A DNA stretch of 64,000 nt from Candidatus Saccharimonadota bacterium (GTDB lineage Bacteria > Patescibacteriota > Saccharimonadia > Saccharimonadales > Saccharimonadaceae), in the NCBI GenBank assembly GCA_017431465.1, contig JAFRLA010000014.1:1-64000 (forward strand), read 5' to 3'. The notes beneath the pieces are model-generated. The model saw only the letters and a list, made by a program, of their open reading frames with translations. It ran no database searches and had not been told where the DNA came from. This document shows positions 4,816 to 31,402 of this stretch, piece by piece (within the stretch, counting starts at the first letter, position 1; every line of letters starts with the position of its first letter). The position numbers were made by a program, and so were the translations under genes.

Positions 4816-4835
4816 AACTGGTATAATTATAACAT
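4816..4835. promoter_or_regulatory. 20-bp divergent promoter between the two-TM protein gene and murC
   Basis: The only space between the two start codons is 20 bp. It holds TATAATTATA, giving a -10 on each strand (plus-strand TATAAT at 4822-4827, 8 nt before the murC ATG). The mRNAs in both directions would have almost no 5' leader, and each -35 would fall inside the opposite gene. Confidence 0.65.
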
Positions 4836-6119
4836 ATGAATATATATATTTCAGGTATTTCTGGAACTGGTATGGGGCCGCTAGCGTTAATGGCGAAATC
4901 GGCTGGTTTTTCAGTTTTTGGGTCAGACCTTTCTGAGGGGGCAATTTCTCGAGAACTTTATAATGCTGATATTCCGTTTGAAACTGGGCCCAACGCCCAG
5001 AACGGCGATTTTTTGCAGAAGTGTTTTGATGAGAACGGAGTGGACTGGTTTGTTTATACTTCGGCCTTACCTCCGAATCACCCAGAACTTGTCTTAGCTC
5101 AAAAACTCGGGCTTCGCGTGTCTAAAAGAGATGAGCTGATTGCGTTTTTGGTCGATAAACTAGGGCTTAATATGGTCGCAGTAGCGGGGACGCATGGCAA
5201 GACTACTACTACTTCGATGATTATTTGGGCTTGTTTGGAGCTTGATATTCCAGTCTCGTATCTTGTTGGGACGACCTTACCGTTTGCGGCCTCGGGCGTT
5301 TATGATACTTCGTCGCAATTTTTGATTTATGAGGCTGATGAATATGATCGGAATTTCTTACACTTTTCGCCGTGGCTTTCGGTAATTACGGTGATTTCAT
5401 ATGACCACCCAGATATTTACCCAACGCGCGAGGACTACCAAAAGGCGTTTCGAAGGTTCGAGGGACAAAGCGACCGGGTTGTTCGGATATCAGACGAATT
5501 TCCGGCTTCGGATTTCCAGATTTCTGGCGCGGCCCGACGCGAGGATGCAAGTTTGGCGGCGCAAGCGGTGCTTATGATGGCCGAGGAAGTCGGGACGACG
5601 ATTCCATACGAGCAAGTAATCGAGGTTCTGAATCGTTTTCCGGGTAGCGGACGGCGATTCGAGCGAATCTGTTCGGGAGTTTATTCAGACTACGGGCATC
5701 ATCCGGAGGAGATTTCTGCAACTATAGATCTTGCGCGCGAAGAAGCTTCGCGGCTAGGCCTTAAGGGCGTTGTAGCGATTTATGAGCCCCACCAAAATAC
5801 TAGGCAACACGAAGTTTTTGACGATTACGCCCGAGCATTTGACGGCGTGTCCCATCTTTACTGGTTGCCAACATATCTCACGCGAGAGAACCCGGAGCTT
5901 TCGATAATCTCGCCGAAAGAGTTTATTTCATCGCTGTCGCCAGAGGTTTCGCAAGTCGCTGAGCCGGCCGAACTTGATTCGACGTTCGGGCTAGAGTTGC
6001 AAAAATGGCGCAGCGAAGGCTATTTGATTTTACTACTTACGGCCGGTCCGGCGGACGCGTGGTTGCGCGAGGTGTTTGCGGGGATGGACGATCTCGTCCC
6101 AGAAAATGCCGACGAGTAG
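4836..6119 (+). CDS. murC: UDP-N-acetylmuramate--L-alanine ligase
   Basis: A 427-residue Mur ligase that adds L-Ala to UDP-MurNAc using ATP in the cytoplasm. It has an N-terminal nucleotide-sugar domain opening with GISGTGMGPLA (residues ~6-16), P-loop GTHGKTTTT (~117-125), the metal/carbamate-region motif YEADEYDRNF (~165-174), and a C-terminal domain with SDYGHHPEEI. The GTHGKTT form and the YGHHP motif point to MurC rather than MurD/E/F; Mpl is a less likely alternative. The last 87 nt overlap, tail to tail, the O-antigen-ligase-like gene on the other strand. Confidence 0.88.
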   Translation: MNIYISGISGTGMGPLALMAKSAGFSVFGSDLSEGAISRELYNADIPFETGPNAQNGDFLQKCFDENGVDWFVYTSALPPNHPELVLAQKLGLRVSKRDELIAFLVDKLGLNMVAVAGTHGKTTTTSMIIWACLELDIPVSYLVGTTLPFAASGVYDTSSQFLIYEADEYDRNFLHFSPWLSVITVISYDHPDIYPTREDYQKAFRRFEGQSDRVVRISDEFPASDFQISGAARREDASLAAQAVLMMAEEVGTTIPYEQVIEVLNRFPGSGRRFERICSGVYSDYGHHPEEISATIDLAREEASRLGLKGVVAIYEPHQNTRQHEVFDDYARAFDGVSHLYWLPTYLTRENPELSIISPKEFISSLSPEVSQVAEPAELDSTFGLELQKWRSEGYLILLLTAGPADAWLREVFAGMDDLVPENADE

Positions 6120-7490
6120 CGGCGGAATAAGATAAATATGGAAGGCATTCGGGAGGCCGGAGAAGAAGAATAAGGTTAGTGCATAAGCGATGATAACGGC
6201 GGTTATGCAGGCGTTAGATGCGCACCTCATATAACCTGCAATCATCACTACCGCTAACCCGATTCCTATGAGGCCAAGCTCAAGGAGAAGCGAAGCGTAT
6301 TCGTTTTGGACAATTTGTTTTCTGGTACCAACTTTGTCAGGAAATTTCTCGTTTAGTATCGTACCAGCAGAGCCAAGACCTGAGCCAAAAATCAAAATTT
6401 TTGGATCGGAAGTTGCTGCTTCCAGCGCCAGGTTAGTGAAATTCACGCGCACATCTGTAGATTCGGAAACGTAGCCATTGTAGGACGAGGATGGGGATGT
6501 CGGTCCCGAGGACTGCTCAGGCTGCTCGGATTGCCCAGACTCAGTGCCTGCCTCATCGTCGGGCGACTGTTCAGGGTTCTCGATGCTATTTTCCTCGGTC
6601 GGGCGAAGATCGAGATGGCCGAGCGTCAAATGGTGTAGTGCTTTAGTTGTGCCGGAGATAAAGTTGTCAGAAGTCGGAGATATGACCGACATTGTTCCCT
6701 GCGCAGTAAGCGTTATCATAAAAGCGGCTAGAACCGCCGGGAAGATCAGTAGCGGTTTTTTAGATTTTTTGGCAAAACTTAGCGAAATTGCCAGGAAAAT
6801 TATCGCAACGATAAATGAGTAAATCGCCCCACGTGAAAAAGTTAGAAAGAGTGTCGTCGAGAAAAAACCGGCGAGCAAAAAGTAGGCTCGTTTGTGGTTG
6901 GTTTTTGTGGCGAAAGCAAGATAAAAACTAAGCAACGCCGGCGCGATCAATAGCCCGCCCATAAACTGCGGCTCCAAAGTAAAGCCGTTCGGGTGCGGAA
7001 AGCCAAAAGAAGTATATGAACAACCGGCGCACATCAAAGAGTCTGCACGCGAAACTCCTGCTAAATCAAGTAAGCATTGAGCCCAGCAAAAAACGCTAAC
7101 AACTGCGCTGGTGATAATCAGAACTTGGAGAAGTTTATGCCTAAGTATGCCATCGTCTTTCAGAAGGTAGAGCGTGTTTAGAGCCGCAAAGATAATTAGC
7201 GTAAGCAGACCGGCAGTTAGAACTGCACGAAAAGGGTTGCCGGACCAGAAAACTGAACCAAATGCATAAAGCGGAAACAGCGCGACTAGGATAAGTTTTT
7301 TTGGCGTAAAGAATTTTATGAGCTTGCCTAAATTCGGAAGACTAACAATGGCGAATAATATTAGCCAAATTTCTGGGAGAGAAATTTCTAGATACATTGA
7401 ATCGGTTTCGCCTAGTCTAATTACTGGGAAATTAGTAAAAAACACAACTATCGGCAAAAGAAACAACGAAAGCCTATTTAATTTTTTCAT
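6033..7490 (-). CDS. O-antigen ligase / Wzy-type polymerase family membrane protein
   Basis: A 485-residue polytopic protein with about ten hydrophobic helices, a large extracytoplasmic loop with Ser/Glu/Pro/Gln-rich low complexity (~residues 290-345), then a conserved-type segment (FGSGLGSAGTI ... QNEYASLLLELGLIGI) typical of the Wzy_C/O-antigen ligase family. It would polymerise or transfer lipid-linked glycans outside the membrane. I start at ATG 7490, with AGAGG upstream, rather than a TTG 3 nt before. It overlaps the upstream glycosyltransferase gene by 17 nt and the convergent murC by 87 nt. Confidence 0.82.
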   Translation of the reverse strand: MKKLNRLSLFLLPIVVFFTNFPVIRLGETDSMYLEISLPEIWLILFAIVSLPNLGKLIKFFTPKKLILVALFPLYAFGSVFWSGNPFRAVLTAGLLTLIIFAALNTLYLLKDDGILRHKLLQVLIITSAVVSVFCWAQCLLDLAGVSRADSLMCAGCSYTSFGFPHPNGFTLEPQFMGGLLIAPALLSFYLAFATKTNHKRAYFLLAGFFSTTLFLTFSRGAIYSFIVAIIFLAISLSFAKKSKKPLLIFPAVLAAFMITLTAQGTMSVISPTSDNFISGTTKALHHLTLGHLDLRPTEENSIENPEQSPDDEAGTESGQSEQPEQSSGPTSPSSSYNGYVSESTDVRVNFTNLALEAATSDPKILIFGSGLGSAGTILNEKFPDKVGTRKQIVQNEYASLLLELGLIGIGLAVVMIAGYMRCASNACITAVIIAYALTLFFFSGLPNAFHIYLIPPLLVGIFWDEIVHPRKHLAQPRVRRTGRK

Positions 7491-8592
7491 CAATAAACCT
7501 CTTTAATTTTTCTTTGAAAAATCTTTCGTCAAACTTTTCGGCAGATTTTTGAATCTTTTTATAGTTAAAGGCTTTTGGATTTTCAGATTTTAGATCTTTG
7601 AATTTCTTGATTGCATAGGCCAGCGATTCTGGAGTTTGGGATTCGAAGAAAATACCGTTCTCGTTAGGCTTAACGTAGTCTAAAGCTCCGCCTTTCCCGT
7701 AGGCTATGACTGGGCAGCCGGCAGCAAGCGCCTCGACTGGCGCAATCCCAAATGGCTCAAGACTTGGGAAAAGATAGGCGTCGGCGTTGGCTAAATAAGT
7801 TTTTAATTCATCCTGATCCATGCGCGGATAGAATGAAATTAATGGCGATCCGGCGGCAAGTTCTACTAATTTTTTATGCTCTGGGCCTTCGCCAATAATC
7901 GTTAAGTGGCTACCAATTTCTAGACAAGCCTCCACGCAAAGATCCAGGCGCTTCCAGGTAACTTGCCTGGAAGTAGTGATAAACCCGACCCCTGTTTTTC
8001 CTGTGGAAAACCCCTTGCTGGCTGTGGAAAACTTTTTGACGTTTACTGGCGGGTGGATGATGGTTGATTCCCTGCCGTAATATTTTTTGATTTGTTCTGC
8101 AGCATACTCGCTGATTGTCACGAACTCATCTGGGTCTTGGGCGGCGGCATAGTCCTTTTTGCGCTGAGGCTTGATAAATAGTCTCAGGCCAAGCCGCGCG
8201 AGTGGATCGAAAATACCAAATCCTGGATTCCTGATATATTCATCGTACATCTGCCAATAATATTGCGTCGGGACGTGACAATAGCAGATATGTTTTTTAG
8301 CCTTTACAGCTTTAGCTTCGGCGCCAGTGACGGAAATTACAAGATCGTATTCGGAAAGATCGAGTTTTCTAAAATAGCGCTGGCGTAATGGCCCGAGAAA
8401 GCGGCGCAACCCTGTTGGGAAAATCTGCAGCCAGCCAGTCCGGACATCGGCGTCTTTAAACCAACCAATTCCCTTTTTGTTATATTTCGAAGTATAGATC
8501 GGAGCGTCTGGATACATTTCATGAATCGCGAGTAATACGCGTTCAGCGCCGCCAACGTTAGTTAGCCAATCGCAAACAATAGCGATTTTCAT
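7474..8592 (-). CDS. GT4-family glycosyltransferase (WbaZ/mannosyltransferase-like)
   Basis: A 372-residue GT-B enzyme. The N-terminal domain opens MKIAIVCDWLTNVGGAERV with the Gly-Gly acceptor-side loop. The C-terminal Glycos_transf_1 domain carries the EX7E motif in EPFGIAPVEALAAGCPVIAY. It would transfer a sugar from a nucleotide donor to a lipid-linked intermediate on the inner membrane face. Its start overlaps the stop of the initiating sugar transferase by 1 nt (TAATG), so the two are coupled. The specific sugar cannot be read from sequence. Confidence 0.87.
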   Translation of the reverse strand: MKIAIVCDWLTNVGGAERVLLAIHEMYPDAPIYTSKYNKKGIGWFKDADVRTGWLQIFPTGLRRFLGPLRQRYFRKLDLSEYDLVISVTGAEAKAVKAKKHICYCHVPTQYYWQMYDEYIRNPGFGIFDPLARLGLRLFIKPQRKKDYAAAQDPDEFVTISEYAAEQIKKYYGRESTIIHPPVNVKKFSTASKGFSTGKTGVGFITTSRQVTWKRLDLCVEACLEIGSHLTIIGEGPEHKKLVELAAGSPLISFYPRMDQDELKTYLANADAYLFPSLEPFGIAPVEALAAGCPVIAYGKGGALDYVKPNENGIFFESQTPESLAYAIKKFKDLKSENPKAFNYKKIQKSAEKFDERFFKEKLKRFIDEKIK

Positions 8593-10019
8593 TACTTGGC
8601 GCCTTTCCGGAATAAGACTGTGCCGATTGTGCGGAGCATGATTTGGAAGTCGCGAAGGAGCGACCAGTTCTGGATGTAATATAAGTCAAGCGCGCGGCGT
8701 TCCTCAAAAGAAATGTCGCGACGCCCAGAAACTTGAGCGAGACCGGTCAAGCCGGACTTCACTGAAAGTAACAATGAGCGATCGCCATAGTCTTTCAGCT
8801 CGCCTGGGACTAGCGCGCGTGGGCCGACTAGCGAAATGTCGCCTTTGATTACATTCCAAAGTTGCGGCAATTCGTCTAAGGAAGTTTTGCGAAGAACCCG
8901 ACCGATCTTTGTAATGCGTGGGTCGTTTTTTAGATAATCGCCGTTACTGCGATATTGTTCAATCAGCTCGGGCTTGCCCATCTTTTCGAAAGCCTTTTCT
9001 GGGCTCATGCCGGAATACTCTGGCGACATCGAGCGGAATTTGTAGATTTTAACTCTTTTGTTATAGCGAGAAAGGCGATATTCGGAATAAAGCGCCGGGT
9101 TCTTCGGGTCAGAAAGTTTGACGATAATCCAGATAATCAACATCGGGATTAGAGCGATGGCGAAAGCGATTGTGCCGAGAATGATGTCGGTCGCACGTTT
9201 CGCGATTCGCGCTCCACCCATTAATGGCGTAACTTTAACTAAAATTGCTGGCGTGTCGCCGATTAGTTCCATACTGCCAATGTGCGAAGTAATTGTCGAG
9301 TCGGTCGGGACAAAATAGTAAAGCATATGGTTTTTAACGGCTTCGCTATATGTGTTTTCGGTCTTTAATTCATCAGTTTGGAAGATAATGTCGGCAGAAG
9401 TATGTTCTAGAGTTTCTTTCAAAGAATTTCGTTTTAGATGCTGATATTCTTCCGGAATGTATTTACTGTTTGCGATAATCGCAACTACCCGGTATCCTTC
9501 TTCCGGCGAGGTAGAAATAAAGTTCAGAAGATTTTCGGTATTTTTGCTATTCCCTATGATAATCACGCGGCGAGTAGCGCGTTTGGTTTTGACAATAATT
9601 AAATAGCGAATCCGGCGAATGATAGCGCGGAAAAGTACTAATGAGATAAAGCAGAGCACAAGCGCCCAAAGCGCGACCGGACGGACTGGGAAAAGGTCGG
9701 TACGGAAAAAGAAATCGTAAGTAATAATAGTCATCATGCCGATGATCGCGGCGAAAAAGATTCTACCAAATTCAGCAGACCGCGAACGGCCGAGGATGAT
9801 TCGTTTGCGGTATAGCCCTAAAGTGGCGAGAATTAGCCACCAAAGCGGGACAAAAAGCAGCGCAGTCAGGGTAAATTCCCAGATGTTTGGATCGAAGTGG
9901 TACGGGCGATCGTCGAGATGTGTGCGGATGAAATAGGCGGCTGCAAAAGAGAGCACAATCGCCGTAGCATCCCCTAGCATTAAGAATAGTCGGTAGATAG
10001 AGCCCGAGTCTTTTTTCAT
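8592..10019 (-). CDS. Undecaprenyl-phosphate sugar phosphotransferase (initiating glycosyltransferase)
   Basis: A 475-residue polyprenol-phosphate hexose-1-phosphate transferase of the WbaP/WcaJ type. It has about five N-terminal membrane helices (~10-135), a Rossmann-like CoA-binding-type domain (~150-240), and a C-terminal bacterial sugar-transferase domain after a membrane helix (~275-300). Family motifs are present: YKFRSMSPEY, DPRITKIGRVLRKTSLDELP, NVIKGDISLVGPR. It loads the first sugar of the surface glycan onto the lipid carrier. A TATAAT sits exactly 6 nt before the ATG, so the message is probably leaderless. Confidence 0.92.
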   Translation of the reverse strand: MKKDSGSIYRLFLMLGDATAIVLSFAAAYFIRTHLDDRPYHFDPNIWEFTLTALLFVPLWWLILATLGLYRKRIILGRSRSAEFGRIFFAAIIGMMTIITYDFFFRTDLFPVRPVALWALVLCFISLVLFRAIIRRIRYLIIVKTKRATRRVIIIGNSKNTENLLNFISTSPEEGYRVVAIIANSKYIPEEYQHLKRNSLKETLEHTSADIIFQTDELKTENTYSEAVKNHMLYYFVPTDSTITSHIGSMELIGDTPAILVKVTPLMGGARIAKRATDIILGTIAFAIALIPMLIIWIIVKLSDPKNPALYSEYRLSRYNKRVKIYKFRSMSPEYSGMSPEKAFEKMGKPELIEQYRSNGDYLKNDPRITKIGRVLRKTSLDELPQLWNVIKGDISLVGPRALVPGELKDYGDRSLLLSVKSGLTGLAQVSGRRDISFEERRALDLYYIQNWSLLRDFQIMLRTIGTVLFRKGAK

Positions 10020-10033
10020 GTTATAATTATATC
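10020..10033. promoter_or_regulatory. 14-bp bidirectional promoter between the sugar transferase gene and galE
   Basis: The two divergent start codons are 14 bp apart. The plus-strand TATAAT (10022-10027) and the minus-strand TATAAT (10031-10026) overlap by 2 bp, and each ends exactly 6 nt before its own ATG. Both transcripts would begin at or next to the A of the start codon. Confidence 0.75.
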
Positions 10034-11038
10034 ATGGATAAGATTTTAATAACAGGGGGGACTGGGTATATTGGCTCACACACAGCGGTTGAGCTAATTA
10101 ACGCAGGCTATGAAGTCGAGATTTTGGATAATCTCGCGAATAGTAAGGCCTCGGTTATTGACCGGATTTTTGAGATTACTGGCGTTCGCCCAGTTTTTCA
10201 TCAAGTAGATCTACTAGATTCTTCAGCGGTTTTGAAAGTATTTAAAGAAGGGTCATTCTCGAGCGTGATTCATTTTGCAGGGCTCAAAGCAGTTGCCGAG
10301 AGTGTTGAAAAACCATTGCTTTATTATGAAAATAATGTCGGGGGGACTTTGAATTTACTTAAAGCGATGTATGAGACTGGCGTTTCACGAATAGTCTTTT
10401 CTTCTTCAGCAACGGTTTATGGCGATATTCCGATTGGTGGACACGGATTTACAGAAGATATGCCTACTGGCCGCGGGATCACGAATCCTTACGGGCGTAC
10501 AAAGTACATGATCGAGGAGATCTTGAAAGATATTTGCATTTCCGATCCGACATTTTCAGCAACAATTTTGCGATACTTTAACCCAATTGGAGCACATCCG
10601 TCGGGGTTAATCGGAGAGGATCCAAATGGGATACCGAATAATTTGATGCCGCTGGTTATGCGGGTGGCACGCAAAGAGATGCCAGAACTTAGTGTCTTTG
10701 GGAACGATTATGAAACCCCGGATGGGACTTGTATCCGCGATTATATCCATATAGTTGATCTGGCTAAAGGACACTTGGCCGCATTGTCGCACGCTGAGCC
10801 GGGCGTCGCAATTTATAATCTCGGCACAGGGCGCGGAACTTCGGTCTTGGAAATGGTCGCAGCATTTGAAAAAGCAAGCGGAGAGAGCCTGCCTTATAGA
10901 ACCATGCCGCGACGAGCGGGCGATTTGCCAATTGTGTTTGCAGATGTATCGAAGGCTTTTTCGGAATTAGGCTTCAAGGCTACGCTTTCGGTTGACGACG
11001 CGATGAGAGACACGCTCAAGTTTTTGCGTAATCAGTAG
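10034..11038 (+). CDS. galE: UDP-glucose 4-epimerase
   Basis: A 334-residue extended SDR enzyme interconverting UDP-glucose and UDP-galactose (or the GlcNAc pair) with bound NAD. The NAD motif GGTGYIGSH is at ~7-15; the catalytic Tyr153-x3-Lys157 is in PYGRTK; FSSSATVYG and LRYFNPIGAHPSGLIGEDP are typical of GalE. Length is standard. It supplies galactose-type donors to the surrounding glycan locus. It reads opposite to the neighbouring cluster, and its last 72 nt overlap the 3' end of a convergent glycosyltransferase gene. Confidence 0.93.
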   Translation: MDKILITGGTGYIGSHTAVELINAGYEVEILDNLANSKASVIDRIFEITGVRPVFHQVDLLDSSAVLKVFKEGSFSSVIHFAGLKAVAESVEKPLLYYENNVGGTLNLLKAMYETGVSRIVFSSSATVYGDIPIGGHGFTEDMPTGRGITNPYGRTKYMIEEILKDICISDPTFSATILRYFNPIGAHPSGLIGEDPNGIPNNLMPLVMRVARKEMPELSVFGNDYETPDGTCIRDYIHIVDLAKGHLAALSHAEPGVAIYNLGTGRGTSVLEMVAAFEKASGESLPYRTMPRRAGDLPIVFADVSKAFSELGFKATLSVDDAMRDTLKFLRNQ

Positions 11039-31384: not shown

Positions 31385-31402
31385 ATGTTATAATTTTACC
31401 AT
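31385..31402. promoter_or_regulatory. 18-bp divergent promoter between the LCP and LexA-like genes
   Basis: The plus-strand TATAAT at 31389-31394 is 8 nt before ATG 31403. On the minus strand a TAAAAT is 8 nt before the LCP ATG. There is no space for SD sites. The LexA-like protein could bind here and control both genes, but I see no consensus operator. Confidence 0.6.

What the first reader, a model, noticed from the sequence alone, without database searches (positions are those of the whole stretch)
10020..10033. Start codons of divergent genes only 14 bp apart over overlapping -10 boxes
The sugar transferase gene and galE share a 14-bp gap. The two TATAAT boxes overlap by 2 bp in a symmetric TATAATTATA core, and each is 6 nt from its own ATG. 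Both -35 regions must lie in the opposite coding sequence. Both polymerases would need the same melted bubble, so transcription should be mutually exclusive, giving an automatic switch between galE and the glycan operon.
Basis: partly seen in the sequence, partly recalled or inferred. Interest (0 to 1): 0.7.

Follow-up and report, generated by a model that had tools for sequence, protein, structure and literature searches.

The report
Shared 20-bp two-way leaderless promoter
Twenty DNA letters appear to hold two overlapping promoters and both start codons for two genes that run in opposite directions, an ultra-compact arrangement that recurs across one genus of tiny bacteria and looks like genome packing and not a switch.

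Summary
Between the sugar-transferase gene (-, 8592-10019) and galE (+, 10034-11038) lie 14 bp. Two perfect TATAAT boxes overlap there by 2 bp, each 6 nt from its own ATG. The T of each TG is the complement of the A of the other gene's ATG: CATGnTATAATTATAnCATG.

In this genus of Saccharibacteria, TATAAT sits preferentially 6 nt before ATG, with a pyrimidine at -1 and no -35 signal. This is the signature of leaderless mRNAs starting on the A of ATG.

The 20-mer occurs at 64 sites in 48 of 174 genus genomes (chance about 0.002), at 18 different neighbour pairs including tRNA genes. Two perfect extended -10s, each 6 nt from its ATG, fit together only at gap 14 or at gap 30 and above. Observed gaps were 14-18 and 33 or more.

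The 'automatic switch' is not supported. The gap varies from 14 to 979 bp at orthologous galE pairs, unrelated housekeeping genes share the motif, and published two-way promoters of this type do not compete at basal activity. Best reading: a minimal bidirectional, leaderless, -35-less promoter that saves space. It is a new variant of the known bidirectional promoters. Start sites are inferred, not measured.

The parts
10017..10036 (.). 20-bp bidirectional leaderless promoter CATGTTATAATTATATCATG (consensus CATGnTATAATTATAnCATG): two overlapping extended -10 elements plus both start codons
10019..10027 (+). extended -10 (TGTTATAAT) of the galE promoter; TATAAT 10022-10027, 6 nt before ATG at 10034. 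T10019 is the complement of the A of the sugar-transferase ATG
10026..10034 (-). extended -10 (TGATATAAT) of the sugar-transferase promoter; TATAAT 10031-10026, 6 nt before ATG at 10019. The T at -15 is the complement of A10034 of the galE ATG
10034..10034 (+). predicted transcription start and first base of galE ATG (leaderless); -1 is C, as in the genus consensus (pyrimidine)
   Evidence: inferred from spacing and logo
10019..10019 (-). predicted transcription start and first base of the sugar-transferase ATG (leaderless); -1 is C
   Evidence: inferred from spacing and logo
10034..11038 (+). galE, UDP-glucose 4-epimerase, 334 aa
8592..10019 (-). polyprenyl glycosylphosphotransferase (Bac_transf), 475 aa
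7474..8592 (-). glycosyltransferase family 4/group 1, next gene on the - strand after the sugar transferase, overlapping by 1 bp
6033..7493 (-). Wzy_C O-antigen ligase-like membrane protein, third gene of the presumed glycan operon

Best explanation
The 20 bp at 10017-10036 are a bidirectional, -35-less, leaderless promoter. Sigma-70-type RNA polymerase recognises one of two overlapping extended -10 elements (TGnTATAAT on either strand) and starts 7 bp downstream of the -7 T, on the A of the ATG of galE (rightward) or of the sugar transferase (leftward). Each base serves both directions: CATG is its own reverse complement, so one gene's C(-1)-ATG is at the same time the ATG(-16 to -14) that carries the TG of the other gene's extended -10. 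Polymerase can sit only one way at a time, but occupancy is probably brief, so both genes are expressed and set by one shared site; nothing here makes a bistable switch. Shown: the sequence, its recurrence, the promoter logo, the spacing rule. Inferred: start sites, leaderless translation, exclusion, co-expression.
For: Spacing of TATAAT to in-frame ATG peaks at exactly 6 nt (92 cases; 35 at 7; about 4-8 elsewhere) in 746 ORFs from 864 kb of the genus. The logo of these 92 is TRTGnTATAAT-N5-Y-ATG, with -15T 84%, -14G 79%, -1 T/C 94% and no information above 0.11 bit from -30 to -40. The 20-mer occurs at 64 sites in 48 of 174 genus genomes and none for the reversed pattern, against about 0.002 expected, and in 2 of 212 genomes of other genera of the family. 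Of 64 distinct sites examined (62 in the genus, 2 outside), 56 lie between two divergent ORFs, 7 between an ORF and a tRNA, 1 is cut by a contig end; 18 different neighbour pairs. The 16-bp core TGnTATAATTATAnCA occurs about 415 times in the genus against 0.7 expected. Enumeration shows that only gap 14 or 30 and above lets two perfect extended -10s stand 6 nt from their ATGs; observed double-leaderless divergent pairs have gaps 14-18 or 33 and above, none 19-32. Offsets of opposed perfect extended -10s show one crossed class, offset +4. At tdk/ung the crossed arrangement persists with gaps 14, 17 and 18.
Against: No transcript data exist here; start sites are inferred from consensus spacing. 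Sigma factor and extended -10 recognition were not tested for this lineage. 14 bp is not kept at most orthologous galE pairs, so nothing specific to galE is under demonstrable selection. The predicted TSS distance (15 bp) is not one of the preferred distances (18, 10, 23) at E. coli bidirectional promoters. The logo was built from exact TATAAT cases, so the box itself is not independent evidence.
Confidence: 0.82

Rival explanations
1. Mutually exclusive switch: polymerase competition at the shared bubble makes galE and the glycan operon alternate.
For: The two promoters share the melted region, and steric exclusion is accepted for bidirectional promoters (PMC12825309). Competition does appear there when one direction is activated.
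Against: At basal activity the five tested bidirectional promoters show no meaningful competition. The element recurs at unrelated housekeeping pairs. The gap is 30 or more in most galE/sugar-transferase orthologues. Both genes are predicted to serve one glycan pathway.
Confidence: 0.07
2. Only one direction is a real promoter here; the other box is a by-product of -10 symmetry, and the second gene is expressed from inside its neighbour or elsewhere.
For: Near-symmetry of -10 elements alone gives antisense starts in other bacteria (PMC10268837).
Against: Both sides carry a perfect TATAAT, TGn, 6-nt spacing and a pyrimidine at -1. The enriched element has genes on both sides at 63 of 64 sites, the last being cut by a contig end. 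In orthologues with wider gaps both genes commonly keep their own -10 next to the ATG or a leader with SD.
Confidence: 0.08
3. The palindrome is an operator for a dimeric regulator that controls both genes.
For: The 20-mer is a near-perfect inverted repeat, as operators often are.
Against: The palindrome is fully explained by two opposed extended -10s and two start codons. It lies at 18 unrelated pairs, the variable positions are just the promoter n positions, and the same elements appear singly genome-wide (81 copies of TGnTATAAT-N6-ATG in this genome).
Confidence: 0.03

Closest known systems
Bidirectional promoters with symmetric -10 elements (Warman et al. 2021; Warman et al. 2026 PMC12825309; Middlemiss et al. 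2023 PMC10268837)
   Same: Opposed, overlapping -10 elements on the two strands of one short stretch, with predicted TSSs within the defining 7-25 bp.
   Different: Here boxes overlap by only 2 bp (TSS distance 15, not 18, 10 or 23), both are perfect and extended, there is no -35, and both RNAs begin with the start codon, so the start codons are part of the opposing promoters.
Leaderless genes with a TANNNT box about 12 bp before the start codon (Zheng et al. 2011 PMC3160421; Deinococcus-Thermus PMC12340547; M. tuberculosis PMC3898074)
   Same: The -10 box starts 12 bp upstream of ATG, so transcription starts on or next to ATG.
   Different: Two such genes are interlocked head to head. The two leaderless papers searched for the word 'divergent' (PMC3160421, PMC12340547) do not use it.
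Back-to-back overlapping promoters of divergent genes in Mesoplasma florum (PMC7745072)
   Same: A reduced genome with extended -10, 5'-RACE-mapped divergent starts at overlapping promoters, and some leaderless starts.
   Different: The text read here reports a representative locus only, and does not describe start codons shared with the opposing promoter or a recurrent palindromic class.

Membership tests
Bidirectional promoter (Warman/Grainger) | -10 elements overlap on opposite strands | tested here: met
   10022-10027 (+) and 10031-10026 (-) share 10026-10027
Bidirectional promoter (Warman/Grainger) | divergent mapped TSSs 7-25 bp apart | not testable with these tools
   Predicted distance 15 bp (10019 and 10034); no RNA data
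Bidirectional promoter (Warman/Grainger) | preferred TSS distances 18, 10 or 23 bp (a preference, not a requirement) | tested here: not met
   Predicted distance 15; in the genus offset +4 (distance 15) outnumbers +1 (distance 18) 9 to 5 with relaxed boxes and 6 to 0 with perfect ones
Leaderless gene | -10 box with its first T about 12 bp upstream of the start codon | tested here: met
   T10022 is 12 bp before A10034; T10031 (- strand) is 12 bp before 10019; genus-wide peak at this spacing
Leaderless gene | mRNA 5' end at the start codon | not testable with these tools
   Inferred; -1 pyrimidine in 94% of 92 promoters supports it
Extended -10, -35-independent promoter | TGn before the -10 hexamer | tested here: met
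   TGT-TATAAT (+) and TGA-TATAAT (-)
Extended -10, -35-independent promoter | no recognisable -35 hexamer | tested here: met
   No sigma-70 type hit at the site; no -35 information in the genus logo
Mutually exclusive transcription switch | silencing one direction raises the other | not testable with these tools
   Needs reporters; analogous promoters did not behave so (PMC12825309)

The most novel reading that the evidence does not exclude
A distinct class of bidirectional promoter in which the start codon of each leaderless gene is itself the extended -10 motif of the opposing promoter (CATG serving as initiator plus start codon on one strand and as TG element on the other). This fixes the closest allowed gap at 14 bp and links translation start, transcription start and opposing promoter strength in the same four bases.
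Probability: 0.6. Interest if true: 0.62.

Novelty: new variant of a known kind. Interest (0 to 1): 0.5.

Why it matters
If the predicted starts are right, this is close to the smallest possible control region for two genes: 20 bp hold two promoters and two start codons, with no other space between the genes. It shows how far genome compaction can go in Saccharibacteria, explains an otherwise puzzling discrete distribution of divergent gaps (14-18 or 30 and above), gives a rule for correcting start-codon calls in these genomes, and offers a minimal two-way promoter part for synthetic biology. It also makes a general question directly testable: whether overlapping promoters compete when neither has a -35 element.

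Tried and rejected
The generic promoter scan did not detect the site because it requires a -35. A second kind of interlock at G000:C15:13384-13409, two TATAAT-N6-ATG sharing one CATG, proved to be chance: the - strand frame is 9 codons. The 5-codon 'ORFs' opposite a release-factor-like gene (and one other gene) in relatives are not peptides; the opposite unit is a tRNA. Strict conservation of gap 14 at galE was tested and rejected. A single origin of gap 14 at galE without later change was rejected by the tree: at least two changes are forced; one gain with later losses is not excluded. A literature search for leaderless genes in Saccharibacteria or Patescibacteria returned only incidental mentions in the papers opened. 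Warman et al. 2021 is not held in the library, so its details come from the two later papers.

Full report
OBSERVATION. The sequence at 10017-10036 is CATGTTATAATTATATCATG. The - strand gene (8592-10019) starts at the complement of CAT 10017-10019 and galE (10034-11038) at ATG 10034, leaving 14 bp. TATAAT is read on + at 10022-10027 and on - at 10031-10026; they share 10026-10027, and each ends 6 nt before its own ATG. Family scans give GalE (equivalog model above its cut-off) and an exopolysaccharide polyprenyl glycosylphosphotransferase, followed on its strand by a family 4/group 1 glycosyltransferase and a Wzy_C ligase-like protein. The start codons are credible: relatives align to residue 1 of the sugar transferase and to residues 1-4 of GalE.

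Both boxes are extended -10 elements: TGT-TATAAT and TGA-TATAAT. With the usual spacing (hexamer -12 to -7, start at +1), the start falls on the A of each ATG, so both RNAs are predicted to be leaderless. The base-by-base table shows the double use. Position 10019 is +1 of one gene and -15 (T of TG) of the other's promoter, and 10020 is -1 of one and -14 (G of TG) of the other; the same holds in mirror image at 10034 and 10033. CATG is its own reverse complement, so C(-1)ATG on one strand is the extended -10 motif on the other.

THE LINEAGE USES LEADERLESS EXTENDED -10 PROMOTERS. In 864 kb from the window and nine genus genomes, TATAAT followed by an in-frame ATG of an ORF shows a sharp peak at 6 nt (92), then 7 (35), 9 (21) and 8 (19), against about 4-8 at most other distances. 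The logo of the 92 is TRTGnTATAAT-N5-Y-ATG; -1 is T or C in 94%, and there is no -35 information. A pyrimidine before a purine start is the usual initiator preference (general knowledge), which supports a start on the A. The window's genome has 81 exact TGnTATAAT-N6-ATG and two genus mates have 86 and 100, with reversed-pattern controls of 0-1; most other families of the phylum have 0-20. Other genera of the same family range from 1 to 90. The galE genes of several other Saccharibacteria carry the same leaderless arrangement singly.

THE 20-MER RECURS. CATGNTATAATTATANCATG occurs at 64 sites in 48 of 174 genus genomes, with no reversed-pattern hit, and in 2 of 212 genomes of other genera of the family. 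A first-order Markov expectation for the genus is about 0.002. I examined 64 distinct sites: 56 lie between two divergent ORFs, 7 between an ORF and a tRNA (Val-CAC or Arg-CCT in the ones typed), and 1 is cut by a contig end. They represent 18 different neighbour pairs. The commonest are a thymidine-kinase-like gene with a uracil-DNA glycosylase (16) and a glycyl-tRNA-synthetase-like gene with an ABC-transporter-like gene (12); galE/sugar transferase has 4. Names other than galE, the sugar transferase and UDG are my reading of the N-termini, not tested. The 16-bp core without the ATGs occurs about 415 times in 174 genomes against 0.7 expected; the total was transcribed by hand from the table, 173 of 174 rows. 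Flanking ATGs are mostly 6-9 nt from the boxes.

WHY 14 BP. Enumerating all offsets, two perfect TGnTATAAT elements each 6 nt from its ATG are compatible only at gap 14 or at gap 30 and above. Observed divergent pairs with leaderless-type boxes on both sides have gaps of 14, 14, 18, 18, 18, or 33 and above, and none of 19-32. Opposed perfect extended -10s in the sample form a back-to-back series plus one isolated crossed class at offset +4, the one seen here (6 cases); with relaxed boxes there are 9 at +4, 5 at +1 (the 18-bp geometry of E. coli) and 2 at +3. Per position, the crossed class is about five times commoner than the average single linker of the back-to-back class: about 415 against 2527 spread over 31 linkers. 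So 14 is a permitted and favoured packing solution, not an accident of this locus.

EVOLUTION. At galE/sugar-transferase orthologues the gap is 14 in four genomes and 30, 35, 38, 48, 51, 54, 62, 67, 75, 138, 198 or 979 in others. On the sugar-transferase tree, gap 14 needs at least two changes, with the pairs G000/G225 and G235/G301 on well-supported separate branches. At the tdk/ung pair the gap is 14 in 8 of 30 loci, 17 in 2 and 18 in 5, wider in 8, and 7 lack the partner; in the 17-bp forms CATGn stays next to each TATAAT while the boxes move apart. The element is thus gained, kept and lost flexibly while the genes stay expressed.

MECHANISM. The best reading is a bidirectional, -35-independent, leaderless promoter. 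Exclusion of simultaneous binding follows from geometry and is accepted for bidirectional promoters (PMC12825309). It does not make a switch: for five E. coli bidirectional promoters, weakening one direction had little effect on the other because basal occupancy is low, and competition appears only when one direction is activated (PMC12825309). Caution: those promoters have imperfect elements, whereas here both boxes are perfect, so occupancy, and hence competition, could be higher. Both galE and the glycan operon are predicted to feed one pathway, which makes joint expression more plausible than alternation. That is inference.

NOVELTY. Bidirectional promoters, leaderless genes with a -10 next to the ATG, and extended -10 promoters are each known (PMC12825309, PMC10268837, PMC3160421, PMC12340547), and a case of back-to-back overlapping promoters is reported in Mesoplasma florum (PMC7745072). 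I found no report of their combination into a unit in which each start codon is part of the opposing promoter, but the library holds open-access papers only, and the founding 2021 paper could not be read. I class it as a new variant of a known kind.

LIMITS. No RNA data; metagenome-assembled genomes; simple ORF calling without a trained gene finder; the logo rests on exact boxes; sigma-factor recognition was not examined.

Noticed in passing
window 4816-4835: A second perfect core, TGGTATAATTATAACA (4819-4834), lies between a Mur ligase gene (+, ATG 4836, 8 nt from its box) and a - strand ORF whose likely start is 10 nt from its box. It is another crossed bidirectional promoter with a 20-bp gap.
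   Followed up: partly
window 31385-31402: An 18-bp gap, CAT-ATGTTATAATTTTACCAT-ATG, between a LytR_cpsA_psr gene (-) and a LexA_DNA_bind gene (+). It has the same crossed geometry with one imperfect box (TAAAAT).
   Followed up: partly
L083, L087, L141, L142, L167, L170 (centre of each locus): In relatives the same 20-mer serves a release-factor-like gene on one side and a tRNA gene on the other (tRNA-Val CAC in the two typed by ARAGORN), so the element also starts stable RNAs where CATG is not a start codon.
   Followed up: partly
L259, L261, L282: Crossed variants with the boxes moved apart by 1-2 bp or so (for example CATGCTATAATCATTATAACATG), keeping CATGn beside each box while the ATG distance grows to 9-10 nt.
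   Followed up: no
genus-wide, for example L002, L010, L012: Some galE orthologues use a leader with a Shine-Dalgarno-like AGGAGG/AGAGGA instead of the leaderless form, so the lineage mixes two start modes and switches between them at orthologous genes.
   Followed up: no
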